Source: Fragum whitleyi (lineage: Eukaryota; Mollusca; Bivalvia; Cardiida; Cardiidae). From it: a stretch of 64,000 nt of DNA. The position numbers and the translations under genes were made by a program. Positions 3,628 to 63,254 of the stretch are shown here, piece by piece. Under the pieces are notes generated by a model. The model had not been told where the DNA came from. It worked only from the letters and a program-made list of their open reading frames with translations, and made no database searches. Within the stretch, counting starts at the first letter, position 1. Each line of letters starts with the position of its first letter. Location of the stretch: NCBI GenBank assembly GCA_948146395.1, contig OX411547.1:34183868-34247867 (forward strand), given 5' to 3'.

Positions 3628-3905
3628 GCCGCCACCAGAGCGCAGTTGGTTAGGCATAAGACTTTCAATCTGGAAGTCGTGGGTTCGATCCCCGGTGGCG
3701 GCAAATATCCTTTCCGACGTTTGTCTCTTACCAATGGGTTGATATAATCGTAAACCTATGTGAGATAGCAGTCGGAGGCTAGGAAAGGGTGTAATGGTAG
3801 TACGGGTGAAAGAAATACCAGAAATCCATTGTTAGGTGCTCCGGCCGCCGCGATATAACTGCGAAATTGTTGAAAGCGGCGAAAAACCCATTCAAACTAA
3901 CAAAA
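3628..3905 (+). mobile_element. tRNA-derived SINE, full length, 12-bp target duplication
   Basis: The first 75 bases are tRNA-like: GCCGCCA pairs with TGGCGGC, there is an A-box-like GCGCAGTTGG and a B-box GGGTTCGATCC. A body follows that is shared with several other copies in the window ('gagatagcag..gaggctagg', 'aaataccag', 'ggtgctccggccgcc', 'gcggcg..aaaccc'). The element is flanked by a perfect 12-bp duplication, CAAATCATTCGA, at 3616-3627 and 3906-3917. That duplication sets both boundaries and indicates a fairly recent insertion. The conserved tail with GGCGTTAAAC-like sequence in sister copies resembles widespread mollusc SINE tails; this is from memory, not a search. Confidence 0.85.
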
Positions 3906-18201: not shown

Positions 18202-20477
18202 CAAGAGGGCCATAGTGGCCCTTAATCGCTCACCTGAATGAACTGTCTAAAATTTTCAAAAGAAGAATGAGAAATAGAATGATGAATGACTGAGCTAAAC
18301 AAAGCTGTTGCTTCTATACAACTTGAGAATCCCTTTTTTACAATTTTAAGGTTGACTAACAAGGATTTTTATAATTGATTTCGTGACCTATTTTTTATTC
18401 CCAGATGACCCAATTTTGATCTCATCCGTGATTTCATCTAGACAATCATTCTGACCAAATTTCAGGTTGATTGGCCAAAAATTATGGCCTCTAGAGTGCA
18501 TACAAGGTTTTTCTTAGATTTGACCCAGTGACCTAGTTTTTGACCCCAGTTGACCCAATTTCGAACTTGTCCAAGATTTCATCAAAACAATCATTCTGAC
18601 CAAATTTCAGGTTGATCTGGCAATAAACGTGGCCACTAGAGTGCCTACAAGGTTTTTCTTAGATTTGACCCTGTGACCCTAGTTTTTGACCCCGGTTGAC
18701 CCAACTTCGAACTCATTCAAGATTTCATCAAGACAATCATTCTGACCAAAATTCAGCTTGATTGGGCAATAAACGCAGCCACAAGAGTGCCTACCAGGTT
18801 TTTCTTAGATTTTACCCTCTGACCTAGTTTTTGACCCCGGTTGACCCAATTTCGAACTTGTCCCAGATTTCATTAGGACAATCATTAAGACCAAAATTCA
18901 GGTTGATCGGACAAAAAATGTGGCCTCTAGAGTGCATACAAGGTTTTTCTTAGATTTGACCCTGTGACCTAGGTTTTAACCCCAGTTGACCCAACTTCGC
19001 ACTCATTCAAGATTTCATCAAGACAATCATTCTGACCAAAATTCAGGTTGATCAGGCAATAAATGCGGCCACAAGAGTGCCTACAAGGTTTTTCCTAGAT
19101 TTGACCCTGTGACCTAGTTTTTGACCCCAGTTAAACCAATTTCGCACTCATTCAAGATTTCATCAAGACAATCCTTCTGACTAAAATTCAAGTTGAACGG
19201 GCAAAGATTGTGGCCTCTAGAGTGCATACAAGGTTTTTCTTAGATTTGACCCCGTGACCTAGTTTTTGACCCCAGTTGACCCAATTTTGAACTCGTCCGA
19301 GATTTCATCAAGACAATCATTCTGACCAAAATTCAGGTTGATCCCGCAAAAAAACGTGGCCAATAGAGTGCCTAGAAGGTTTTTCTTAGATTTGATCCTG
19401 TGACCTAGTTTTTGACCCCGGCTGACCCAATTTCGAACTCATTCAAGATTTCATCAAGACAATCATTCTGATCAAAATTCAGGTTGATCAGGCAATAAAT
19501 GCGGCCACAAGAGTGCCTTCAAGGTTTTTCCTAGATTTGACCCTGTGACCTAGTTTTTGACCCCAGTTGACCCAATTTCAAAATCATTCAAGATTTCATC
19601 AAGACAATCATTCTGACTAAAATTCAAGTTGAACAGGCAAAAAATGTGGCCTCTAGAGTGCATACACGGTTTTTCTTAGATTTGACCCCGTGACCTAGTT
19701 TTAGACCCCAGTTGACCCAATTTCGAACTTGTCCGAGATTTCATCAAAACAATCATTTTGACCAAATTTCAGGTTGATCTGGCAAAAAATGTGGCCTCTA
19801 GAGTGCCTACAAGGTTTTTCTTAGATTTGACCCTGTGACCTAGTTTTTGACCCCAGTTGACCCAATTTCAAAATCATTCAAGATTTCATCAAGACAATCA
19901 TTCTGACTAAAATTCAAGTTGAACGGGCAAAAAATGTGGCCTCTAGAGTGCATACACGGTTTTTCTTAGATTTGACCCCGTGACCTAGTTTTTGACCCCA
20001 GTTGACCCAATTTCGAACTTGTCCGAGATTTCATCAAAACAATCATTTTGACAAAATTTCAGGTTGATCTGGCAAAAAATGTGGCCACTAGAGTGCCTAC
20101 AAGGTTTTTCTTAGATTTGACCCTGTGACCTAGTTTTTGACCCCAGTTGACCCAATTTCGAACTCGTCTGAGAATTCATCAAGACAATCATTCTGACCAA
20201 AATTCAGCTTGATCTGGCAAAAAATGTGGCCTCTAGAGTGCCTACAAGGTTTATCTTAGATTTGACCCCGTGACCTAGTTTTTGACCCCAGTTGACCCAA
20301 TTTTGAACTCGTCCGAGATTTTATCAAGACAATCATTCTGACCAAAATTCAGGTTGATCCGGCAAAAAATGGGGCCTCTAGAGTGCATACAAGGCAAATG
20401 TTGACGGCGGACATCGCACGACGGACATCCACCTAACCACAATAGCTCACCATGAGCACTTCGTGCTCAGGTGAGCT
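18202..20477 (-). mobile_element. Array-bearing element 'A', 145-bp unit, complete
   Basis: The left end is AACAAGAGGGCCATAGTGGCCC (hairpin GGGCCA-tag-TGGCCC), then ATCGCTCACCTGAA. About 13 units of 145 bp follow ('gacctagtttttgacccc', 'gatttcatcaagacaatcatt', 'ttcaggttgatc', 'tggcctctagagtgc'). The right end is GACGGCGGACATCGCACGACGG, then a long nested hairpin AGCTCACC.TGAGCAC-ttc-GTGCTCA.GGTGAGCT. A second copy with diverged units is at 26643-29578. No protein is encoded. Confidence 0.75.
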
Positions 20478-25540: not shown

Positions 25541-26642
25541 TATGCATAAAAATTATGCAAGCAAGATTTGCAGTTCTTGTGCACTGCACTTCTCCGTCAT
25601 GCGATCTATCCACCCATAAAGGTTTCAAGTTGATAGCTATTATACTTAAGGAGATATGCTCCGGACAAAAATCTAAGTCTTAAAAATAACAAAGGGAAAT
25701 AACTCCAAAATTATAAAAGCCAGAGTTATAGTTCTTGTGCACTGCACTTCTCTTCCATGAGATCTATCCTCCCATAAAGTTTCAAGTTGATAGCTTTAAT
25801 ATTTTAGGAGATATGCTCCGGACAAAATCTAAGTCTTAAAAATAACAAAGGGCAATAACTCCAAAATTATGCAAGCAAGAGTTGTAGTTCTTGTGCACTG
25901 CACTTCTCCTCCATGAGATCTATCCTCCCATATAGTTTCAAGTTGATAGCTATTTTACTTTAGTTAAAATGCTCCGGACAAAATCTAAGTGTTAAAAATA
26001 ACAAAGGGCAATAACTCAAAAATTATGCAAGCAAGATTTGCAGTTCTTGTGCACTGCACTTCTCCGTCATGCGATCTATCCACCCATAAAGGTTTCAAGT
26101 TGATAGCTATTATACTTAAGGAGATATGCTCCAGACAAAATCTAAGTGTTAAAAATAACAAAGGGCAATAACTCCAAAATTATGCAAGCAAGAGTTGTAG
26201 TTCTTGTACACTGCACTTCTCCTTCATGAGATCTATCCACCCATAAAGGTTTCAAGTTGATAGCTATTATACTTAAGGAGATATGCTCCAGACAAAATCT
26301 AAGTCTTAAAAATAACAAAATCTAAGTCTTAAAAATAACAAAGGGAAATAACTCCAAAATCATGCAAGCAAGAGTTATAGTTCTTGTGCACTGCACTTCT
26401 CTTTCATGAGATCTATCCACCCATAAAGTTTCAAGTTGATAGCTATTATACTTTAGGAGATATGCTCCGGACAAAATCTAAGTCTTAAAAATAACAAAGG
26501 GCAATAACTCCAAAATTATGCAAGCAAGAGTTATAGTTCTTGTGCACTGCACTTCTCCTTCATGAGATCTATCCACCCTTAAAGTTTCAAGTTGATAGCT
26601 ATTGTACTTTAGGAGATATGCTCCGGACAAAATGTAAGTCTT

Positions 26643-29578
26643 AACAAGAGGGCCATAGTGGCCCTTAATCGCTCACCTGAATTAACAATCTTAAAATGTT
26701 TTTCTAAGATTTGACCCCATGACCTAGTTTTTGACTCCACTTGACCCAATTCCAAACTTGTCCGAGATTTCATCAAGATAATCATTCTGACCAATTTTCA
26801 GGTTGATTGGGCAAAGAATATGGCCTCTAGGGTGTCCACAAGGTTTTTCTAAGATTTGACCCCGTGACCTAGTTTTTGACCCCACTTGACCCAATTTTGA
26901 ACTTGTCCGAGATTTCATCAAGATTATCATTCTGACCTATTTTCAGGTTGATTGGGCTAAAAATATGGCCTCTAGAGTGTCCACAAGGATTCTCTAAGAT
27001 TTGACCCCGTGACCTAGTTTTTGACCCCACATGACCCAATTTCGAACTTGTCCGAGATTTCATCAAAATGATCATTCTGACCAATTTTCAGGTTGATTGG
27101 GCTTAAAATATGGCCTCTAAAGTGTCCACAAGGTTTTTTCTAGATTTGACCCCGTGACCTAGATTTTGACCCCAGTTGACCCAATTTCAAACATGTCCGA
27201 GATTTCATCAAGATAATCATTCTGACCAATTTTCAGGTTGATTGGGCCAAAAATATGGCCTCTAGAGTGTCGACAAGGTTTTTCTTAGATTTGACCCCGT
27301 GACCTAGTTTTTGACCCCACTTGACCCAATTCCAAACTTGTCCGAGATTTCATCAAGATAATCATTCTGACCTATTTTCAGGTTGATTGGGCTAAAAATA
27401 TGGCCTCTAGAGTGTCCACAAGGTTTTTCTAAGCTTTGACCCCTTGACCTAGTTTTTGACCCCACTTGACCCAATTTCGAACTTGTCCGAGATATCATCA
27501 AGATAATCATTCTGACCAATTTTCAGGTTGATTGGGCTAAAAATATGGCCTCTAGAGTGTCCACAAGGTTTTTCTAAGCTTTGACCCTGTGACCTAGTTT
27601 TTGACCCCACTTGACCCAATTTCGAACTTGTCCGAGATTTCATCAAGATAATCATTCTGACCATTTTTCAGGTTGATTGGGCTAAAAATATGGCCTCTAG
27701 AGTGTCCACAAGGTTTTTCTAAGATTTGACCCCGTGACCTAGTTTTTGACCCCACTTGACCCAATTTTGAACTTGTCCGAGATTTCATCAAGTTAATCAT
27801 TCTGACCAATTTTCAGGTTGATTGGGCTAAAAATATGGCCTCTAGAGTGTCCACAAGGTTTTTCTAAGATTTGACCCCGTGACCTAGATTTTGACCCCAC
27901 TTGACCCAATTTCGAACTTGTCCGAGATTTCATCAAGATTATCATTCTGACCTATTTTCAGGTTGATTGGGCTAAAAATATGGCCTCTAGAGTGTCCACA
28001 AGGTTTTTCTAAGCTTTGACCCTGTGACCTAGTTTTTGACCCCACTTGACCCAATTTCGAACTTGTCCGAGATTTCATCAAGATAATCATTCTGACCAAT
28101 TTTCAGGTTGATTGGGCTTAAAATATGGCCTCTAGAGTGTCCACAAGGTTTTTCTAAGATTTGACCCCGTGACCTAGCTTTTGACCCAACTTGACCCAAT
28201 TTTGAACTTGTCCGAGATTTCATCAAGATAATCATTCTGACCAATTTTCAGGTTGATTGGGCTAAAAATATGGCCTCTAGAATGTCCACAAGGTTTTTCT
28301 AAGATTTGACCCCGTGACCTAGTTTTTGACCCCACTTGACCCAATTTCGAACTTGTCCGAGATTTCATCAAGATTATCATTCTGACCAATTTTCAGGTTG
28401 ATTGGGCTAAAAATATAGCCTCTAGAGTGTCCACAAGGTTTTTCTAAGATTTGACCCCGTGACCTAGTTTTTGACCCCACTTGACCCAATTTCGAACTTG
28501 TCCAAGATTTTATCAAGATAATCATTCTGACCAATTTTCAGGTTGATTGGGCTAAAAATATGGCCTCTAGAGTGTCCACAAGGTAAATGTTGACGACGCA
28601 CGACGCACAACGCACGACGGACGACGGACATCAAGTAACCCCAAAAGCTCACCTTGAGCACTTCGTGCTCAGGTGAGCTAAAAAAGTGACCAAATTTCAG
28701 GTTGATCAGACAAAAAATGTGGCCTCTACAGTGGGTACAAGGTTTTTCTAAGATTTGACCCCGTGACCTAGATTTTGACCCCAGTTGACCCAATATCAAA
28801 CTTGTCCGAGATTTCATCAAGACAATTATTGTGACCAAATTTCAGGTTGATCAGACAAAAAATGTGGCCTCTAGAGTGCATACAAGGTTTTTCTAAGATT
28901 TGACCCTGTGACCTAGTTTTTGACCTCAGTTGACCCAATTTCGAACTCATCCGAGATTTCATCAAGACAATCATTGTGACCAAATTTCAGGTTGATCTGG
29001 CCAAAAATGTGGCCTCTAGAGTGCATACAAGGTTTTTCTAAGATTTGACCCTGTGACCTAGTTTTTGACCCCAGTTGACCCAATTTCGAACTCGTCCGAG
29101 AATTCATCAAGACAATCATTGTGACCAAATTTCAGGTTGATCTGGCCAAAAATGTGGCCTCTAGAGTGCATACAAGGTTTTTCTAAGATTTGACCCTGTG
29201 ACCTAGTTTTTGACCCCAGTTGACCCAATTTCAAACTCGTCCGAGATTTTATCAAGACAATCATTGTGACCAAATTTCAGGTTGATCTGGCCAAAAATGT
29301 GGCCTCTAGAGTGCATACAAGGTTTTTCTAAGATTTGACCCTGTGACCTAGTTTTTGACCCCAGTTGACCCAATTTCAAACTCGTCCGAGATTTTATCAA
29401 GACAATCATTGTGACCAAATTTCAGGTTGATCTGGCCAAAAATGTGGCCTCTAGAGTGCATACAAGGCAAATGTTGACGACGGACGTCGCACGACGCACG
29501 ACGCACGTCGCACGACGCACGACGGACATCCACCTAACCACAATAGCTCACCTTGAGCACTTCGTGCTCAGGTGAGCT
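26643..29578 (-). mobile_element. Array element 'A', one head and two tails, inserted in element B
   Basis: The head AACAAGAGGGCCATAGTGGCCC lies at 26643. Thirteen 145-bp units follow, then a complete tail (ACGACGGACGACGG and the AGCTCACC..GGTGAGCT hairpin, about 28585-28681). Five more units of a different sub-family come next (28685-29465), and a second complete tail (29467-29578). The minus strand shows a chain of 71-codon frames spaced exactly 145 bp apart; these arise from the repeat and are not genes. Confidence 0.7.
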
Positions 29579-29637
29579 AAAAATAACAAAGGGCAATAAC
29601 TCCAAAATTATTGAAGTAACTATAGAGGAAAAGTTGT

Positions 29638-29710
29638 GCCCGACATGGGACTCGAACCCACGACCCCCGGAACACTAGCACGGCGCTCTAACCAACTGAG
29701 CTAACCGGGC
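29638..29710 (-). tRNA. tRNA-Thr(AGT)-like gene inside the TRIM 3' LTR
   Basis: This 73-nt sequence folds as a cloverleaf on the minus strand. The acceptor is GCCCGGT/GTCGGGC (two G-U pairs) and the D-stem GCTC/GAGC. The anticodon arm is CCGTG-CTAGTGT-TCCGG (one mismatch), giving AGT with T33. The variable loop is GGGTC and the T-arm GTGGG-TTCGAGT-CCCAT. A-box (TAGCTCAGTTGG) and B-box (GGTTCGAGTCC) are good matches. No CCA is encoded. Whether it makes a functional tRNA or only drives Pol III transcription of the element is unknown. Confidence 0.65.
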
Positions 29711-29859
29711 ACCTGGTCATGAGTCTACCCATCATCGAACACTACACTCCTCCCCCTTTTAACCAATTGGAGCCGGTCCCATACCGCTCCCAAATGGCCG
29801 AACCCAGCGTTCTCCGTTTACTTCTGACACCATTGAAGTAACTATAGAGGAAAAGTTGT

Positions 29860-29932
29860 GCCCGACATGGGACTCGAACCCACGACCCCCGGAACACTAG
29901 CACGGCTTTCTAACCAACTGAGCTAACCGGGC
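29860..29932 (-). pseudogene. tRNA-Thr(AGT)-like sequence inside the TRIM 5' LTR, D-stem broken
   Basis: Identical to 29638-29710 except for two adjacent bases, which change the 3' side of the D-stem from GAGC to GAAA and so lose pairing. The B-box is intact. It is probably a damaged copy of the same gene-like unit. Confidence 0.6.
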
Positions 29933-30182
29933 ACCTGGTCATGAGTCTACCCATCATCGAACACTACATTATGCAGGCAAGAGTTGTATTTCTTGTGCAC
30001 TGCACTTCTCCTCCATGAGATTTATCCACTCATTAAGTTTCAAGTTGATAGCTATTATACTTTAGGAGATATGCTCCGGACAAGTTTAGTGACGGAACCT
30101 CGGAATGACGGAATGACAGAATGACGGAATGACGGACGGAGAGCATTACTATATCCCCTCACCGAAAACGGCGGGGGATAAA

Positions 30183-36917: not shown

Positions 36918-37018
36918 TTTGAGACTTTAAAACTTCCTACAATCTCCTGACCAGTTTTTCATTTCCATGACTACCTTTCACTTGACTTAAAAGGCAACCA
37001 TACGTAAAATAATACTAC

Positions 37019-37415
37019 CTCTACCATAAGGGCCTGATGATCTGTTACCATAACCACGCCCACCACGCATCGGTCCGCCTCCATAACCCCAGTCACCACC
37101 GCCATAACCATAACCATCATCATAACCACCGTAACTCTGCTTTGACTTTTCCTGCGCTTTCTTAACTGTCAACTCTTTGCCGTTACAGTTGAAAACTTTG
37201 ATCAACACACACCTGTCCACTTCGTCATAATCAGAAAATGTGATAAAACAGTACGGCTTAGGCTTGTTCTTCTCTTTGTCCATGATCATTTTTACTTCCT
37301 TTATTTCTCCTTGACTTTCAAAGCATTCCCTAATTTCCTCTTCAGTCATTCCCTCCTTGATTCCGCTGACAAACAATTTGACTATGTTGTCCGAAGACTC
37401 ACTCTGACCATCAGC
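37019..37415 (-). CDS. hnRNP A/B-like gene, exon with RRM2 and start of Gly-rich tail
   Basis: A 397-nt exon, phase 0 in and phase 1 out. Acceptor GATTTAG precedes 37415; donor GGTAGAG|GTAGTA follows 37019. An acidic/serine linker comes first, then RRM2: RNP2 is L-F-V-S-G-I and the RNP1 position reads K-P-Y-C-F-I-T-F. The usual RNP1 core is K/R-G-F/Y-G/A-F-V-x-F. The invariant Gly is therefore replaced by Pro and one small residue by Cys, which is unusual for a binding surface. After the RRM comes a basic stretch (KKAQEKSK), then YGGYDDGYGYGG, DWGYGGG, MRGGRGYG and SSGPYGRG repeats. Tails of this kind bind RNA weakly and self-associate in the family. Confidence 0.93.
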
Positions 37416-38068
37416 CTAAATCAAACGCAAAAAAAATATGGTAAAATCAAGCCACCCTCTTTCTAGCTCATGTATTATGTTACCTTTGCCAATTCCAGGG
37501 TATAATTCATTATCATCGACACAGTTCACAAAATTTTAACTTGGCTCATCAAAATGTCTATTAACACCAGGTCGGCATTGGGTCAGATACATATGGGTAA
37601 GGTTTGGACAGCTTGTATTACTAGCAAACCATGGTTCAGACACTAAAATATTTGAAACCATTTTTATCTAACCTCTTTAATATCTTCATGAAAACAATCT
37701 GTATTTGAAATTTCATTGATGCCTCACATGTACTATTTAATTTTGGATTATTCTTCCATTTTTTGTGCATTTGCTGAAAAATTGGTTTTAAGTGTTAACA
37801 AAAACAATTTTGAGTATGCTTTTATTTTGTAAGCTTCAGCAAAAAGGTAGCCCAGTGAGAAATCTTTCTATATTGACAAATAATTGCATTTTTGATTATG
37901 AAATTATATTATTATAAGATATGAAGAGAGTATTTGTTGATTATGAGGTATGAAAGTAAAATCCTAATCACTCTTATGTATGAATCCACTTTGCACTTTG
38001 AAACAGTCTAATTAGATTTTTCAGTTGAATACCTTAATGTACTTAACAAATATTCTCTTCAACACTTA

Positions 38069-38228
38069 ATTCATCCTTTCCTAGCTTCCAGCTGCCATCC
38101 CACATAGGTCTATGCTTATCAACCCATTGGTGGAAGACAGTTGGAAAGAATGAGTGCCGCCAACTGGGATCGAACCCGGGACCTTTTGAATGATAGTCTG
38201 ACGCACAACCACTGCATTATGATGGTGG
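38069..38228 (-). mobile_element. tRNA-derived SINE, 3'-truncated, in an hnRNP intron
   Basis: On the minus strand, the head reads AGCCACCATCATAATGCAGTGG, with B-box GGTCCCGGGTTCGATCCC. The body (TGGGTTGATAAGC.., GGGATGGCAGCTGGAAGC) is shared with 3628-3905. It lies just downstream of the donor of exon 38270-38390. Confidence 0.7.
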
Positions 38229-38269
38229 CTCTTAATTACATGGTCTAAATCATCATAATGACAACTTAC

Positions 38270-38390
38270 AAATCTTGGCATGGCTCTCTTAGTCTCAACT
38301 TCTCTTCCATCAAGATTGTGGGGCCTCTCATTTTGTACGTCCTCTATACTCTGTGAGTCCTTGTATGTGATGAAACCAAAACCTCGAGAT
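38270..38390 (-). CDS. hnRNP A/B-like gene, exon with RRM1 RNP1
   Basis: A 121-nt exon, phase 2 in and phase 0 out. Acceptor CTTAAACAG precedes 38390; donor AGATTT|GTAAGT follows 38270. It carries the RNP1 octamer R-G-F-G-F-I-T-Y of RRM1, the following helix (D-S-Q-S-I-E-D-V), and the conserved L-D-G-R-E-V-E-T-K-R-A that ends hnRNP A/B RRM1. All core aromatic residues for RNA stacking are present, unlike in RRM2. Confidence 0.93.
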
Positions 38391-38440
38391 CTGTTTAAGG
38401 AACAGAAATTTGTTCAAATAACATGTCAGTGCTTCTATTT

Positions 38441-38602
38441 AAAGGTAGTGGACCCGTAATAGTTCCACAACATTACGGAACACATGATCTTTCACAATGT
38501 TGACCGAGGTTTCCTAATGAAAATCATTAGGAGACCTCGGTTAACATTGTTGAAGTTAATTACTTTTGAGACATTGCGAAACTATAACGGGTCCACTACC
38601 TT
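38441..38602. mobile_element. MITE with 'GGTAGTGGACCC' ends (copy 3), intronic
   Basis: AAGGTAGTGGACCCGTAATAG ... ACGGGTCCACTACCTT between TTAA flanks, with the hairpin GAGGTTTCCTAATGA / TCATTAGGAGACCTC. It is the best-preserved member of the family and lies about 50 bp upstream of exon 38270-38390 on the transcribed strand. Confidence 0.75.
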
Positions 38603-39275
38603 AATATCATTATCATTACAAGTTTGAGTGGAATTGATAAAACCATAATAATTTAGCGAGTACATTTGCAGTGTAGTTAGAATCTAAGAGTTATTATGTA
38701 CACAAATTATAGAACAGAAAACTTGATAAGTATGAAGTCTTTTCAACCTGCTTTAGGATTGAAGTTGAGCCGAGCTGTGGGCCTTGCCCAAAACAGTCAT
38801 TTGATGGTTTCTTTAGTCCTGTTTTGTAAAGTAAAGGAGCTTCTGTCCTTTTTTATTCAGAGATACAGATAGAGGGAGTATTTTGGATTTCAAATGATAG
38901 TGTTTGAATTGTACTTGCACAACTCCTAATTTGTGGATACTCAGAGCTACAGATAGAGGGTGCATTTTGGATTTCAAATTCAGATATTTCATCGGGCCTT
39001 ACTTAAACACTTATGTTGTTGGTACTCATTTGAAACCTCTCATGGAGACCATTCAAAATGAGTACCTCACAATAATAGGGTTTCATTGTGAAATAAAGAT
39101 TTTAGACTAACTTTACCCCCTCTTATCAAGACCCCTTGGCACTCAATAGAATTGTCTCATTGAGACGAATTTAATGTACCCACAACATTAAGGTTTCAAT
39201 GAGAAATAAGGATTTTGGACTGGCATTATCCCCTCTTATCTGTGTACTTCAGAGATCGGAACTGAATCAACCTAC

Positions 39276-39531
39276 TTGTTGGTATTGGAATCCTTCATGA
39301 CAACCACATCCTCTACTTCTCCCCACTTCTCAAAATGGGCCTTCAATCCTTCAGTTGTGGTATCATAGCTCAGTCCACCAATAAATAACTTGCGGAAGGG
39401 TTCAGAATTTCTGTCTTTGTAATAGTCATCTGGAGTTGCCTTTCTGCCGCCTCCACGGCCGCCCCCGCCACCACCACGTCCACCTCTTCCTCCACGGCCA
39501 CGACCACCGCCGCCTCCACTTCCATAACCTC
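39276..39531 (-). CDS. hnRNP A/B-like gene, exon with RGG box and first half of RRM1
   Basis: A 256-nt exon, phase 1 in and phase 2 out. Acceptor TATAATCAG precedes 39531; donor AACAA|GTAGGT follows 39276. It starts with a Gly/Arg block (G-R-G-R-G-G-R-G-G-R then a Gly run), then K-A-T-P-D-D-Y-Y and R-N-S-E-P-F-R. RRM1 begins here with RNP2 L-F-I-G-G-L, followed by S-Y-D-T-T and H-F-E-K-W-G-E-V-E-D, as in hnRNP A/B. The RGG block lies upstream of RRM1, whereas vertebrate hnRNP A1/A2 have it after the RRMs. A 79-codon frame on the same strand here is only a shifted reading of this exon. Confidence 0.93.
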
Positions 39532-41619
39532 CTGATTATAAGATACATAAAAAATGTCTTCATGTAGGGTTAGGCAATTGTTTAAAGCAAATTTAAGACC
39601 TCTCATCAATATGGCCCCAACCCTGCATTATTCAGCCACAACTTTTCCATTTGGCAAAAATGATGCTTCATTTTTTTGAAGCCAGGGTGTACACTGGTAA
39701 CACTGAAAAGAGATTCTTATGAAATACGAATTTCTCATGAGATATTAAAGAGCAAATATATTGATGACAGAAAATTTAATGGGTCAAAAGAAGATCATTT
39801 TTACTTTTTATGAGTCAAAACACTGGTTAAGGGTCAAACATGAGCCTTTTTCGATAATGCATTAAAATCTTTACTAGTAAGTCTGATCATAGTTACACTC
39901 ATTTTGGTCCATTTCAATTTGGAATAAACACCCAGTTGTGTTGACAGATTCAGCTTTGTAAACATTTTCTTGTCTAATAGCCTTTTAAAATGTTAATAAA
40001 TCAGTAAAACTTTCATCAGCTATCAATGAATGACGAGGCTGCATACAGTGTAAGTTCTACACAACCGTACAATAGTTGGACATGCAGGGTTTCCCCCCCC
40101 AAATAAAACACAAATGGGAGTGATTTACCCCTAAAATTGAACTTGTGACCCCCCCCCCCCCATTTTCTTAAAAGCAGCCTTATAATCTATGGTAAAGTAC
40201 ATAAATGCATTTCTAAACATAAGTTTTTTACCCCACTTTACAGCGGTTCACGGTCAACCCCTGCCTGTGAATAACTTGGCCTGTTTATATCTTATATAGG
40301 TATATGTATGACGATGCAATGTAAATATTTTCGGGACCTTATGTGCTTTTTAAATAATTATTATACTATTATATGGCGTTTATTTAAATATGAGATAAAA
40401 TAGATATACTTAAATACTTTGTTCACCTTTCATTCAAATTTATTTTTCAAATTATTTTTTCTAAGCACAAAAGAAGATGAGAAGTTATATCAGGGTTTTC
40501 ATTAGCATCCAAAAGCCAAGAGTCAATGACCCTTGAGTCAAAATGAAAATCTCATGCGTCAATTATGAACGAATCATGGATCTACTCCCCCCCCCCCCAA
40601 AAAAAAAAGAAAAAAAAAAAAAAAAAAAATGAAGTGAAAAAAAAAAAAAGTTTCAAATTTATAAAAAAAATGGGGGGAAATCATTTTAATTGTATTGAAA
40701 CAGATAAAATTAGGTACAGGTCATTTTTCAAAAGGTGCCTGAAATTAAACAATAAATCAATGATTTATCACCATCATACTTCACCATAATTTCCAGTCAT
40801 TAAATAATTACTAAAGAGCTTAATTTTAGACTAAATGCTTGTTTTATCGTAAGTACAATGAAGTGGAAAGAGTTTTGAAGTTGGAAATGCTAGTAAAAGG
40901 TTCTGAAGATTTTTATTTTTCGCTAAAAGAAATAGATTCCAACCACGAAAACCCATGACAATTCAAAACAGTTCCTACTTTTGATGTTTACATGCTTACT
41001 TTTTAGTTACTGCCTGAATTATTGTGAAATTATTCAATAATAGGTTTTTTTGTGTGTGAACAGAGGTAAAGCAAAAGGGTTTTAGCTGATTTTCACAGGT
41101 GTCAAAAGACTGTCAATTACGATCGCCGATGCATATCCGATCACCAGAGTGTGTTAATTGCCAATCAAGCTAGGTGTTATTAGACCACCAATTAACTATT
41201 TTCCAATAATATGACACACTTCTTTAAACCCTTGACGCACAGCTGCTATTTTTGAAGAGTCAAAATGACGCACCAGCTCAAATTTCCGAGAGTCAAAATT
41301 GCATCATTTTGAATTTCTGTGCGTCAAAACCCGGGGTCCCGGGTCAAACGAAAACCCTGTATATGCGTATTAAATATGAAGATCTTATATGTTGGTCATC
41401 AATTGTGAATTTGCACCTCCTTTAAGTACATTGCACATATTGATTAACTATCTGAAAGGTGTGCTTATATATCCGTTTACTAGGCTAAACACTAAATAAG
41501 TTATATACAGGCTGAGTTTTACACAGGCCGAGTTTTACACGGGCCGAGTTTTTAACAGGCCGAGTTGACAGGACATCCTTTACAGCAGCAGTAGGAACCC
41601 TGACATGTGCAGACTGAAG
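39532..41619. other. hnRNP intron 2, distal part
   Basis: Low-complexity sequence: C-runs near 40092-40099 and 40149-40160, and a C-run plus A-rich block at about 40586-40670. At 41508-41571 there are four imperfect 'aggccgagtttttaacA' repeats of about 17 bp. The 74-codon frame at 40565-40789 is an A-run artefact. Confidence 0.5.
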
Positions 41620-46855: not shown

Positions 46856-48372
46856 TTATTTCGTCCACTCTGCACTGTTGTAGCGCTGATTATTTATCAC
46901 TACTCTACCAGACCGTGTGATATATGGGTTTTGTGGTAATAGGTCTGGGGCTTTTTGTTTTCTCTCAACAATTTGGGGCTCATTTGGGAAACTATTTGAT
47001 GGGTGTGCCAAAATGTTAAAATCTACCGGTTTAATGTCAAGGGTGTTTTCATTTGTTTTGATTATGGCGAGACGGTTCCGGCGATACATAGCACCATCCC
47101 TAGCCTGTAAAGTATATGACCTAGTTGGGTGAATTTGCATAACTTTGCCAGGTCTCCAAATTTTTCCAAACTGAACTCTAACCGAGTCATGTAAATTTAA
47201 AGGCTTCACTGGTTTTTTATGTTTTGTCATATCCCTGTTTTTGAGTATTTTTCAATGAATCATTGACTCGCGTAGCTTATTTTCATTTACGAGTTTCCGT
47301 TTTAAAGCCTTGTTCGTAATTGGAAGAACGACTTAGTTGTTCTGTTAAAAAGAAGTTGTGCCGGCGATTACCCAGAGTCGAGTGGTGTATTTCTGTATTC
47401 GAGAAAGCTTTTGTAAGGATTTCGACCAGTATCTTTTGCTTTTCTCGTGAGTTTTTTCGCAACCTCGACACCCTTTTCCGCTATAGAATTTCCTTGAGGA
47501 TAGTATGGGGATGACGTCGTGTGATAAAAATTCCATTCTTTCGCGAATTCGGCGAATTCTGAACACGAGAAATGAGGACCGTTCTCGCTAACAAGAATAT
47601 CGCATTTTCCGTTGCGTGATAAATGTACCTTCAATTTATGTACAATTGTAGAGGCATGCGTGTCTGGTAAATAATCGACCTCAAAAATCGACAGTGGTAT
47701 TCAATCGTAAGCAGATAATATTTTCTATTCAAATGGAATAAGTCAGTACCAATCTTTTGGTACGGTCTACCTGGAAACTCCATAGAAACCATTGGTTCCC
47801 GCGCGTTTGATTCTCTATGTGTGAGACAAGTTGGGCACTGCAATACAAAGTCTGTTATTTGCTTCTGCATGCCAGACCAAAATACTATCTTTTGTGCGTT
47901 GGACCGTATTGGTTACACCGAGGTGGCAAGCATGGACCTTTCTAACCATTTCTTGTCGCAATGATTTCGGTATGACAATACATTGACCTCTGAAAACCAG
48001 GTCATCTTCGACCGCGAGTTCATCACGGTGATTCCAGAACTCCATGATCAACGAATTGCATTTTGACCTATCCGACGGCCTTCCTTCAAGAATTGTTTGC
48101 TTTAATTTGATCATTTGAGGTTCTTTTCTTGTTTCAGACTTAATGATTTCGATACGACGATCCGTAACAAAAAGATGTTGTTTGACAGCATGAACGTTTA
48201 AATCAAGACCATCAATCAAGTTTGGATAAGTGTCCTGAACCGTATGTCTCGATAAGCAATCACTGACGGGTATTTCCTTACCAGGCACGTGCGTCACGAT
48301 GATGTCATATTTCTGCACCTGAAGCAACATTCGTTGTAATCGTTGTGGAGTTGCTGTCAACGGCTTTTTCAT
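46856..48372 (-). mobile_element. Ty3/gypsy-type retrotransposon relic (RNase H end and integrase)
   Basis: The minus strand holds four overlapping frames in pol order. 48372-47815: RNase H end / tether (Q-R-L-Q-R-M-L-L, G-K-E-I-P-V-S-D, L-S-R-H) and the start of the integrase zinc finger (H-x3-H). 47870-47631: the Cys part of the finger (C-P-T-C) and the first catalytic region (G-T-D-L-F). 47634-47368: integrase core with V-S-E-N-G-P-H-F, where family members have Asp in place of Glu, and Y-Y-P-Q-G-N. 47230-46856: integrase C-terminal SH3-like part (W-R-P-G-K-V). Frameshifts separate them. Protease, RT, gag and both LTRs are absent. It is an inactive fragment, cut at 48372 by a LINE. Confidence 0.8.
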
Positions 48373-49290
48373 GGTAGAATGAATGAATGTTGTTTTATGG
48401 CCCATCGACAACTAAGGTCATGTTGGGCCCAAACATTTCTGTATTAAACTAGAATAGTCCTACGTGAGCACGAAAGCACATGGACTCCCCTCAGATCAGG
48501 AGAACGGCCCATGTGCGAGTCCACCCGACCGGAAAATTCATAAAAAAGTGAGCATTCATTGTATGCACTGAAATTTAAGTGAACAACATTTTAAGTCTCA
48601 ATGTATACATATAAAAACCCAAAAGAAATTTTCCAATGTAAAAGAAATAATGACCAAAAGAGCTATTGAAAACGATAAAATTTAATACAACCATTTCAAA
48701 ACTTACGAAGAAAATACAATTAATAGAGACTAAAAATCAGATTTTACTATATAAATGACTTGCCTTTAAAAAGACAAAAATAAGATCTAGTTTGACACGG
48801 TCAAACAGCTGCCCCATACTATCAACTTTAAGATATCTGTCCCTGATAATAGAAAAATCAATACAATATATAAAAATATGTTTGATAGTTAATGGAGCAT
48901 TACAGAGAATGCACATTGGCATCTGTTCTCCTTTTAAAAGGTAGGAGTGCGTTAAGTGAGTATGACCAATGTGTAACCGAGTCAAAATCTGCTCTTCGCG
49001 ACGGTATGACCTTTAACCAGGTAACCAAGCGCCGAGGTCCTGTCGAACAGAATATAGTTTATTATTTTGGTTCGAAGGATCTTACCAACAGTTCCTCCAG
49101 ACATCACGACAAAACAAAAAAATAGGGGTTTAAAATCGGTAAAAGGTTCTTCAAAGGGTAAAATTTCAAGTGATAATGCATCCATGGCAGCTATATCTGC
49201 CTCCTCATTACCACGAATACCAATATGGCTTGGAAGGCAGCCGAAAACGAGATCAACATCATTAGGCTTGGCTATTTCATCAAGGCCCAA
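48373..49290 (-). mobile_element. I/Nimb-like LINE 3' fragment (RNase H, zinc finger, 3' UTR)
   Basis: The frame 49290-48982 carries the RNase H signature P-S-H-I-G-I-R-G-N-E-E-A-D. The frame 48985-48737 carries T-R-L-H-I-G-H-T-H-L-T-H-S-Y-L-L followed by C-I-L-C and H-I-F-I-Y-C. This is the zinc finger that ends ORF2 of LINEs with an RNase H domain. The 3' end is a short GAATGAATGAAT tail (about 48374-48388) abutting the gypsy relic, so the LINE inserted into it. Confidence 0.75.
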
Positions 49291-61759: not shown

Positions 61760-62642
61760 GGAACGATTTGTTTGACTCGAATCAGTTTACACTGGATGCC
61801 TCCACTACTGAGTTTGGAAGTTTATTCCATAGATTGACTACTCCGTTGCTTAAGCTATTTTTCCCCAATAGTACATCTGTAATGGTACAGTTTGAAGTGG
61901 TTTCCCCCATGTTATTTAAGTATCACTCCTTCTTAATATATTAACAGATTTTAAGTCTAGTCTTTGTATAAGTTTGAAAGCTTGAATAAGGTCTTTCCTA
62001 TCTCGTCTGTACACTAGCGATAGAAGACCTAGTTTAATAAGACGTTCAGTATATGACATGTTTTTAAAATGCTTTTACATTCCAGTGGCTCTTCTTTGTA
62101 CGTTTCAATCATCCTAGATTGTTTTTTAATCTCGGATACCATATAACAGAGTTATGTAAGTGTTTGAACATATTTTCGTCCATGTAATTGAAAGTCCTTT
62201 GCTGATTTCTAGATTTCTGTTGGCTAAAGATACTTTAGTGTTAATGTGTTAAGTAAAGCTTAGGTTTTTATCTGTGATAACACCTAAATCTTTCTCATTG
62301 GCTGATACTTCTAATTTCGATATTGAACTGTGATGGTTTTTCATGAATTATTGTCCTGGTTCTTTTTCCCCATTATGTAGAAAAATAAATTTCTTGATAT
62401 TGGATTTCATTCCCCGTTTGTTAGCCCATTCACAAGCTTGGAAAATATTATCTTGGAGTAGATTCTCGTCATTTGCTGAGGACACACTTTTGTAGAGTTC
62501 CGTGTCATCTTCAAAATACTTTGTTTGGCAAGTTGATACGTCAGGGAGATCATTTTTGAAAAATTAGGAACAGAACCGATCCAAGTACATTTCCCTGCGG
62601 TACTCCGCTTTTTACCATTTGCCAGTCTAATTCTTTTCCATT
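61760..62642 (-). mobile_element. CR1/Jockey-like LINE reverse transcriptase relic
   Basis: Minus-strand translation, in several frames, shows V-K-S-G-V-P-Q-G-N-V-L-G and F-L-I-F (about 62610-62550), a degraded active-site region, N-E-K-D-L-G-V near 62290, and R-L-I-K-L-G-L-L-S-L-V-Y-R-R-D-R-K-D-L (about 62050-61980). Stops and frameshifts are frequent. Confidence 0.7.
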
Positions 62643-62647
62643 TATCT

Positions 62648-63254
62648 TGACTTAAAAGCAGCTTTCGATAAAGTACCGTATGTAAGACTTCTAAAAAAGA
62701 TTAAATCGATATGTATCAAAAACAAAGTTTATAACTGGCTGGAAGATTTCCTTATTAACAGACAACAAAGGGTCACTATAAACGAACATTCGTCAACCTG
62801 GCAAAGAGTAACAAGCGAGGTTCCACAAGGCATTGTATTAAGGCCCATTCTATTCCTAATCTTTATTAATGACTTACCAAACAACCTGAAATGATGTACC
62901 CGAGTGTTTGCAGGTGACACTAAATTATACTCACAAATCACACTTCCAGAAGATGAGGTCAACTTACAAGATGACATAATGGAAGTGTGTAACTGGGCAG
63001 CCAAGTGGCAAATGTCTTTCAATCCAAAGAAATGTACACAAGAAATGCATTTAGGTAAAGGTCCATCTAGTGAATACTACATGAAAGACAATAATGGCAA
63101 AATCCACTTGATAGAAAATGTACTTGAAGAAAAGGGCCCATGTGTCATTTTCGATAGAGATTTAAAACTTGATAAGCATATAAAAAGTAAAGTTAACCTG
63201 GCAAATAGAAACTTAGTTAAGAACATTGTTTTGTCAAGAAAAGTATTTTTCTAA
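62648..63254 (+). pseudogene. CR1/Jockey-like LINE reverse transcriptase fragment
   Basis: Plus-strand translation shows A-A-F-D-K-V-P, then N-W-L-E-D-F-L, V-P-Q-G-I-V-L and L-F-L-I-F-I-N-D-L-P. An in-frame stop follows at about 62892. The palm motif then reads F-A-G-D-T-K-L: the first catalytic Asp of F/Y-A-D-D is Gly. Downstream lie W-Q-M-S-F-N-P-K-K-C and L-D-K-H-I, as in the family. It is inactive by stop and by active-site loss. It lies back to back with 61760-62642. Confidence 0.8.

What the first reader, a model, noticed from the sequence alone, without database searches (positions are those of the whole stretch)
29612..29968. A 357-bp TRIM retrotransposon whose LTRs each contain a tRNA-Thr-like gene
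Seen directly: two 135-bp direct repeats (TG...CA, 2 mismatches), a PBS-like TGGTGTCAGAAGT one base after the 5' LTR, a polypurine tract abutting the 3' LTR, a TTAT duplication, and an empty-site equivalent in the neighbouring B array. Each LTR includes a 73-nt tRNA cloverleaf with A- and B-boxes. Plant Cassandra TRIMs carry 5S rRNA genes in their LTRs. A tRNA gene in the same position in an animal element is, to my knowledge, not a standard family. It would let Pol III transcribe across the LTR.
Basis: partly seen in the sequence, partly recalled or inferred. Interest (0 to 1): 0.88.

Follow-up and report, generated by a model that had tools for sequence, protein, structure and literature searches.

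The report
Mollusc mini-retrotransposon carrying tRNA-like genes
A 357-base mobile element, present in hundreds of copies in a genome that is likely a mollusc's, carries a tRNA-like gene in each of its two end repeats; by structure it belongs to the already described Helenus elements, and the tRNA-like gene likely serves as its RNA polymerase III promoter.

Summary
Window 29612-29968 is a complete TRIM on the minus strand: two 135-bp LTRs, PBS, PPT, TTAT duplication, and an empty site in neighbouring array units. The genome has 358 matches to the LTR end and 284 to the LTR-PBS junction (reversed controls 0). Exact 4-bp target duplications flank 52 of 69 full-length copies, 4 of 4 tandem forms and 7 of 10 solo LTRs (mismatched flanks 1.0%). 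The 13-nt PBS matches the 3' end of host tRNA-Leu(CAA)-type genes. The claim that no such animal family is known is outdated: Kojima (2024) described TRIMs with tRNA sequences in their LTRs as Helenus, bivalves included. This is likely a new Helenus family (a primer not listed for bivalves); the host is a mollusc, possibly a heterodont bivalve, on weak evidence. New here: in 79 elements, changes inherited from source copies are scarce over the whole tRNA, its leader and TTTT trailer, while later mutations hit that stretch freely. Source copies thus appear to keep a whole Pol III unit. It is unlikely to be a working tRNA-Thr: G37 and a stem mismatch are kept, and the host has its own genes. Pol III transcription and the helper element are unproven.

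The parts
29612..29968 (-). whole element (TRIM, Helenus type), 357 bp
29834..29968 (-). 5' LTR (sense orientation), 135 bp
29612..29746 (-). 3' LTR, 135 bp
29747..29833 (-). internal region, 87 bp, too short to code for the needed enzymes
29820..29832 (-). PBS, 13 nt complementary to tRNA-Leu(CAA)-type 3' end plus CCA
29747..29760 (-). polypurine tract AAAAGGGGGAGGAG
   Evidence: sequence
29858..29932 (-). tRNA-Thr(AGT)-like gene in 5' LTR; D stem broken in this copy (31.3 bits)
29636..29710 (-). tRNA-Thr(AGT)-like gene in 3' LTR (47.2 bits)
29851..29854 (-). TTTT, presumed Pol III terminator, 5' LTR
   Evidence: sequence; 0 pre- and 6 post-insertion changes at these 4 sites in 79 elements
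29629..29632 (-). TTTT, presumed Pol III terminator, 3' LTR
   Evidence: sequence
29608..29611 (+). target site duplication TTAT
29969..29972 (+). target site duplication TTAT
25549..26644 (+). 157-bp tandem array, units of which show the empty site

Best explanation
Window 29612-29968 is one copy of a multi-copy TRIM family whose 134-135-bp LTRs each hold a tRNA-Thr(AGT)-like gene that likely acts as its RNA polymerase III promoter, which by structure makes it a member, likely a new family, of the known Helenus group. Shown: LTRs, a PBS against a host tRNA-Leu(CAA)-type 3' end, PPT, 4-bp duplications, solo and tandem forms, copies with near-identical LTR pairs. Inferred: Pol III starts just upstream of the tRNA in the 5' LTR, sometimes reads through the first TTTT, and stops at the TTTT in the 3' LTR. 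This gives an RNA whose ends share an R region made of the tRNA unit, with U5 as the last 17 nt of the LTR. tRNA-Leu primes reverse transcription, R allows strand transfer, and integrase and reverse transcriptase come in trans from an autonomous LTR retrotransposon not yet identified. Selection on source copies likely keeps the whole Pol III unit (leader, tRNA, TTTT); the tRNA itself probably does not serve translation.
For: Copy number and controls. TSDs of exactly 4 bp, solo and tandem forms. Empty site. LTR-LTR differences 0 in 6 and at most 1 in 18 of 79 elements. PBS: 108 of 125 internal starts match 13 nt and 3 match 18 nt of the tRNA-Leu(CAA)-type 3' end, 14 match less; 20 genome places carry that 3' end (control 0). 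Constraint: in 79 elements, changes shared by both LTRs (pre-insertion) against changes between them (post-insertion) are 24/324 in the tRNA and 102/174 outside it; non-CpG 7/160 against 100/155; non-box tRNA 20/247, boxes 4/77; leader 9/57, trailer with TTTT 6/28, variable patches 87/73. The set found by the PBS pattern alone gives 20/238 against 71/118. Structure matches Kojima's Helenus.
Against: No expression data. A TTTT directly after the tRNA should end most Pol III transcripts before the internal region. No proven helper: the other LTR family found with this PBS has a 219-aa ORF without Pfam match or database homolog. 17 of 69 full copies lack an exact TSD, 12 of them differing by one base. 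The variable sites outside the tRNA lie in two short patches and may be few events, so p-values are overstated; counting each variable site once regardless of sharing removes the contrast (19 of 74 against 20 of 61, p 0.45), and by distinct alleles it is weak (p 0.04). No comparison with Repbase Helenus sequences was possible.
Confidence: 0.85

Rival explanations
1. The LTR gene is a working tRNA-Thr gene, and the element spreads or supplies a host tRNA.
For: ARAGORN of 158 LTRs tRNA-Thr(AGT); nearly the whole tRNA is conserved in source copies; two diverged copies have the canonical loop CTAGTAA.
Against: The family's loop is CTAGTGT, so position 37 is G (that real tRNA-Thr has A37 is recalled, not from a call), and a U-C mismatch is kept in the anticodon stem. 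Score 47.2 bits against 73.4 for two of three fetched host genes, 56.9 for the third. The host has its own genes: one 30-nt tRNA-Thr(AGT) string occurs 13 times exactly and 4 times with a change (counted from the list); the 3 of these 17 that were fetched are called tRNA-Thr(AGT).
Confidence: 0.06
2. The tRNA is a passenger; the element is transcribed by Pol II like an ordinary TRIM.
For: Ordinary TRIMs exist; no transcript data here.
Against: Source-level conservation of leader, boxes, tRNA and TTTT; no TATA-like box in the 36 nt before the tRNA (sequence), whereas the other Leu-PBS family has TATAAATA.
Confidence: 0.12
3. The tRNA cloverleaf or its RNA has a direct role in retrotransposition (strand transfer, packaging, or protection by pairing with U3) beyond the promoter.
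For: Non-box tRNA positions are about as constrained as the boxes (20/247 against 4/77). The presumed read-through RNA folds better than shuffles (z -3.82, 0 of 100), and in 48 of 70 elements at least 20 of 29 U3 bases pair with the 5' LTR.
Against: No covariation supports the helix; it is absent in 12 of 70 folds. U3 positions 8, 13, 14 and 15 vary. Young copies are near-identical, so their folds are not independent. Folded alone, the tRNA stretch does not beat shuffles clearly (z -1.09), and its minimum-energy fold (-28.0) is not the exact tRNA cloverleaf (-19.1 kcal/mol; base modifications ignored).
Confidence: 0.2
4. A cluster of duplicated tRNA genes, not a retrotransposon.
For: Tandem forms exist (4 with complete ends).
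Against: 4-bp TSDs, PBS, PPT, and copies scattered over many contigs.
Confidence: 0.01

Closest known systems
Helenus TRIMs (Kojima 2024, PMC10886601), above all bivalve families able to encode tRNA-Thr
   Same: TRIM with a tRNA-like sequence with boxes A and B in each LTR, PBS and PPT, 4-bp TSDs in animals, solo LTRs, tandem arrays (reported for LTR-11_DR), length within 311-1263 bp
   Different: Listed bivalve hosts are all Pteriomorphia and listed bivalve primers are Lys, His, Ile, Pro, Glu and Ser; here the primer is a tRNA-Leu type, and the host is a mollusc of unproven subclass. Sequence identity to any Helenus consensus untested.
Cassandra (plant TRIM with 5S rRNA in the LTRs)
   Same: Pol III gene inside the LTR, RNA ends expected inside that gene, tandem arrays
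   Different: tRNA, not 5S rRNA; animal, not plant, host; 357 bp against 565-860 bp
biv-TRIM (PMC6934838)
   Same: bivalve TRIM with short internal region, solo and tandem forms
   Different: 202-218 bp repeats, 77-80 bp inner domain, PPT mostly GGGGAGA, no clear PBS and, in all but one species, a conserved TGATCCCAAAGGAC segment; here 134-135 bp LTRs, 87 bp inner region without that segment, clear PBS
tRNA-derived SINEs
   Same: Pol III tRNA head
   Different: here two LTRs, a fixed 4-bp TSD, PBS and PPT

Membership tests
Helenus | short non-coding LTR element (TRIM) | tested here: met
   355-361 bp in most full copies, 87-bp interior
Helenus | tRNA-derived sequence with boxes A and B in each LTR | tested here: met
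   TAGCTCAGTTGG and GGTTCGAGTCC present
Helenus | PBS after 5' LTR and PPT before 3' LTR | tested here: met
Helenus | 4-bp TSD (animal families) | tested here: met
   52 of 69 full, 4 of 4 tandem, 7 of 10 solo; control 69 of 6972
Helenus | mobilised by Gypsy elements | tested here: inconclusive
   a second LTR family shares the PBS, but its ORF has no Pfam match or homolog
Helenus | Pol III transcription (TRIMp3) | not testable with these tools
   no RNA data; indirect constraint evidence only
Helenus | sequence similarity to Repbase Helenus families | not testable with these tools
   Repbase not held; no look-ups in the paper's supplements allowed
Cassandra | 5S rRNA sequence in the LTRs | tested here: not met
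   Rfam at gathering thresholds reports only tRNA there
biv-TRIM | 202-218 bp repeats and TGATCCCAAAGGAC inner segment | tested here: not met
   134-135 bp LTRs, and the segment is not in the printed inner region
SINE | no LTRs, TPRT-type insertion | tested here: not met
   LTRs, PBS, PPT, fixed 4-bp TSD

The most novel reading that the evidence does not exclude
The element's R region is a complete pre-tRNA gene kept base by base, because the tRNA-like RNA itself, not just boxes A and B, is needed to retrotranspose: the conserved U3 stretch pairs with the upstream tRNA in the read-through RNA, hides it from tRNA-processing enzymes and brings the ends together for strand transfer. Helenus would then use tRNA structure as part of its replication machinery.
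Probability: 0.15. Interest if true: 0.75.

Novelty: new member of a known kind. Interest (0 to 1): 0.4.

Why it matters
It adds a tRNA-Leu-type primer to what is listed for bivalve Helenus and, if the host is a heterodont as one weak hint suggests, extends Helenus beyond pteriomorph bivalves. It gives a within-genome test of what selection keeps in a tRNA-bearing LTR: apparently the whole Pol III unit rather than boxes A and B alone. Practically, such LTRs can be miscalled as tRNA-Thr(AGT) genes: 358 LTR ends against about 17 host-type matches.

Tried and rejected
Rejected: a functional tRNA-Thr supplied to the host (see rivals); tandem tRNA cluster; SINE. An Rfam tRNA scan of the genome was uninformative: only 63 of 167,698 candidates were scored. 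A first host tRNA-Thr pattern gave 2 matches against 5 for its reversed control, both diverged LTR copies; a wider one gave 68, no more than its reversed control (68), and only the recurrent 30-nt string in its list was taken as host genes. Origin of the LTR tRNA (Thr or Ile body) is unresolved: the tRNA-Ile search did not complete. ARAGORN with introns called one of six Leu-type genes Leu(CAA) and five Met(CAT), and without introns none; I read all six as tRNA-Leu(CAA) with an intron from their sequence, which is inference. Host identity is weak: for a joined hnRNP query the best named hit is Dreissena polymorpha, a heterodont, 289 bits, but land snails (231) and Lottia (228) follow, Crassostrea has 227, and the heterodont Ruditapes only 204. 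Mollusc is supported, heterodont only hinted at; on re-checking this I lowered interest from 0.42 to 0.40. Matching the genome to a published assembly failed (listing; passages). Two 3-kb stretches fetched downstream in the second Leu-PBS family contained no 3' LTR.

Full report
What is there. The element lies at 29612-29968 and is read on the minus strand: 5' LTR 29834-29968, one base, PBS 29820-29832, inner region to the PPT at 29747-29760, 3' LTR 29612-29746, flanked by TTAT. Both LTRs give a tRNA-Thr(AGT) call and Rfam tRNA matches of 47.2 and 31.3 bits; the lower score is the upstream LTR, where two changes private to this copy break the D stem (absent from L002-L008). Joined flanks align across the junction to eight other places in the window, six of them units of the neighbouring 157-bp array.

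Family. A 24-nt LTR-end pattern (up to 2 mismatches) has 358 genome matches and the LTR-PBS junction pattern 284; the reversed patterns have none. The tool lists only about the first 100 places of each, and one search scored 40 of 1134 candidates, so the copies examined are a sample: 8 loci, the 32 regions, 30 loci, 16 regions, then 40 of 42 remaining junction places and 20 of 24 single-LTR candidates drawn up. These 146 loci gave 143 distinct places after dropping repeated flanks: 100 LTR-inner-LTR (70 with complete ends), 18 lone LTRs (10 complete), 5 with three LTRs (4 complete), the rest partial. Of 69 full copies with both ends and flanks, 52 have an exact 4-bp TSD and 64 differ by at most one base; 4 of 4 tandem and 7 of 10 solo LTRs have exact TSDs; none has a 3-, 5- or 6-bp match; pairing flanks of different copies gives 69 of 6972. 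The tandem forms with a single outer TSD fit LTR recombination. LTR-LTR differences range from 0 (6 of 79) to 24; of the larger groups, copies with the extra D-loop T and G14 are youngest (16 elements, mean 1.4%). The family likely has both old and recently inserted copies.

Primer. 125 inner starts were examined: 108 match the complement of a tRNA-Leu(CAA)-type 3' end plus CCA for 13 nt and 3 for 18 nt; 14 match less. Twenty genome places carry that tRNA 3' end (control 0); the six fetched show, as I read them, a Leu body with an intron. Kojima lists Lys, His, Ile, Pro, Glu and Ser for bivalve Helenus and Leu for some wasps and vertebrates.

What selection keeps. In 79 elements (80 of 100 full places had both LTRs long enough; L018 was dropped as it shares flanks with L017) I split differences into pre-insertion (same in both LTRs, unlike the majority) and post-insertion (LTRs differ); gapped sites were left out. 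tRNA: 24 pre, 324 post. Outside: 102 pre, 174 post (odds ratio 0.13). Seventeen of the 24 are at CpG sites; at non-CpG sites it is 7/160 against 100/155. Sites with a pre-insertion variant shared by at least 3 elements: 0 of 74 in the tRNA, 10 of 61 outside; by at least 2: 4 and 12. With any variant counted once the contrast vanishes (19 of 74 against 20 of 61, p 0.45), and by distinct alleles it is weak (p 0.04): these are results against a strong claim. Boxes 4/77 and the rest of the tRNA 20/247 are alike. By blocks: variable 8-15 58/38, leader 16-36 9/57, trailer with TTTT 6/28, variable 121-127 29/35, no pre-insertion substitution in the first 7 or last 8 nt. The set found by the PBS pattern alone (36 elements) gives 20/238 against 71/118, the other 43 elements 4/86 against 31/56; in those 43 the shared-site comparison is not significant (0 against 2 sites, p 0.20). 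Copies are related and the variable patches may be few events, so p-values are too small; still, source copies appear to hold the stretch 16-120 nearly fixed, that is leader, tRNA and terminator.

Not a translation tRNA, most likely. The conserved loop is CTAGTGT (G37) with a U-C mismatch in the anticodon stem; the requirement for A37 in tRNA-Thr is recalled. Two diverged copies have CTAGTAA, so the source may once have been a proper tRNA. The host's own tRNA-Thr(AGT) scores 73.4 bits in two of three fetched genes (56.9 in the third) and shares the stretch TAGCTCAG-TGGTTAGAGCGCC with the LTR.

Mechanism. The anatomy fits a Cassandra-like cycle with a tRNA in place of 5S: Pol III initiation near LTR position 25-33 (inferred from typical tRNA genes), read-through of the first TTTT, stop at the second, R equal to the tRNA unit. 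The presumed RNA (window 29629-29944, minus) folds with z -3.82; 48 of 70 elements pair at least 20 of 29 U3 bases with the 5' LTR and 12 pair none. The tRNA stretch alone has z -1.09, and its minimum-energy fold is not the exact cloverleaf. This is a lead, not evidence of function.

Helper. The PBS pattern with two more tRNA-Leu letters gave 17 places (control 0). Eight were fetched: three are TRIM copies (L152-L154), four (L147-L150) are copies of another LTR family with the same 18-nt PBS and one-base spacing, and L151 is a distant relative of it. Its LTR is about 980 bp, starts TGTA and has TATAAATA. Its 219-aa ORF has no Pfam match and no homolog at E 0.001, so neither autonomy nor superfamily is shown.

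Host. 1.22 Gb in 38 contigs. A joined hnRNP query has its best named hit in Dreissena polymorpha (289 bits), then land snails, Lottia and Crassostrea (231-227); Ruditapes, also a heterodont, has 204. A mollusc is supported; a heterodont bivalve is only hinted at.

Literature. Kojima 2024 was read in full. Of the bivalve TRIM paper I saw the first part and passages; of the Cassandra array paper and a razor clam genome paper, passages; in the Cassandra 5S paper a term search found none of six terms; other papers only as search listings. Searches for Helenus and TRIMp3 and for TRIMs with tRNA in molluscs, animals or clams showed no other report of Helenus in the listings returned, of which I saw the top 10 to 20; the library lacks most subscription journals.

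Verdict. Real, correctly read as a TRIM, but of a kind already named; the new parts are the likely new family, its primer and the constraint pattern.

Noticed in passing
window 3631-3703 (+): Rfam tRNA match of 32 bits not called by ARAGORN; looks like a tRNA-derived SINE head.
   Followed up: no
window 36987-39535 (-): RRM exons of an hnRNP A/B-like gene; best named homolog Dreissena polymorpha.
   Followed up: partly
window 46856-48411 (-): Likely remnants of an LTR retrotransposon, weak integrase core match (24.5 bits, below cut-off) at 47368-47700.
   Followed up: no
window 62631-62894 (+): Reverse transcriptase fragment (RVT_1, 44.5 bits).
   Followed up: no
window 18383-20394 and 26698-29458: Long 145-bp tandem arrays.
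   Followed up: no
L029 and L030: TRIM copies lying beside more diverged, inverted copies of the same family.
   Followed up: no
L167 and L168: Diverged LTR copies with the canonical anticodon loop CTAGTAA instead of CTAGTGT.
   Followed up: partly
L147-L150: Another LTR family sharing the 18-nt tRNA-Leu PBS, with a roughly 980-bp LTR and an ORF of no known family.
   Followed up: partly
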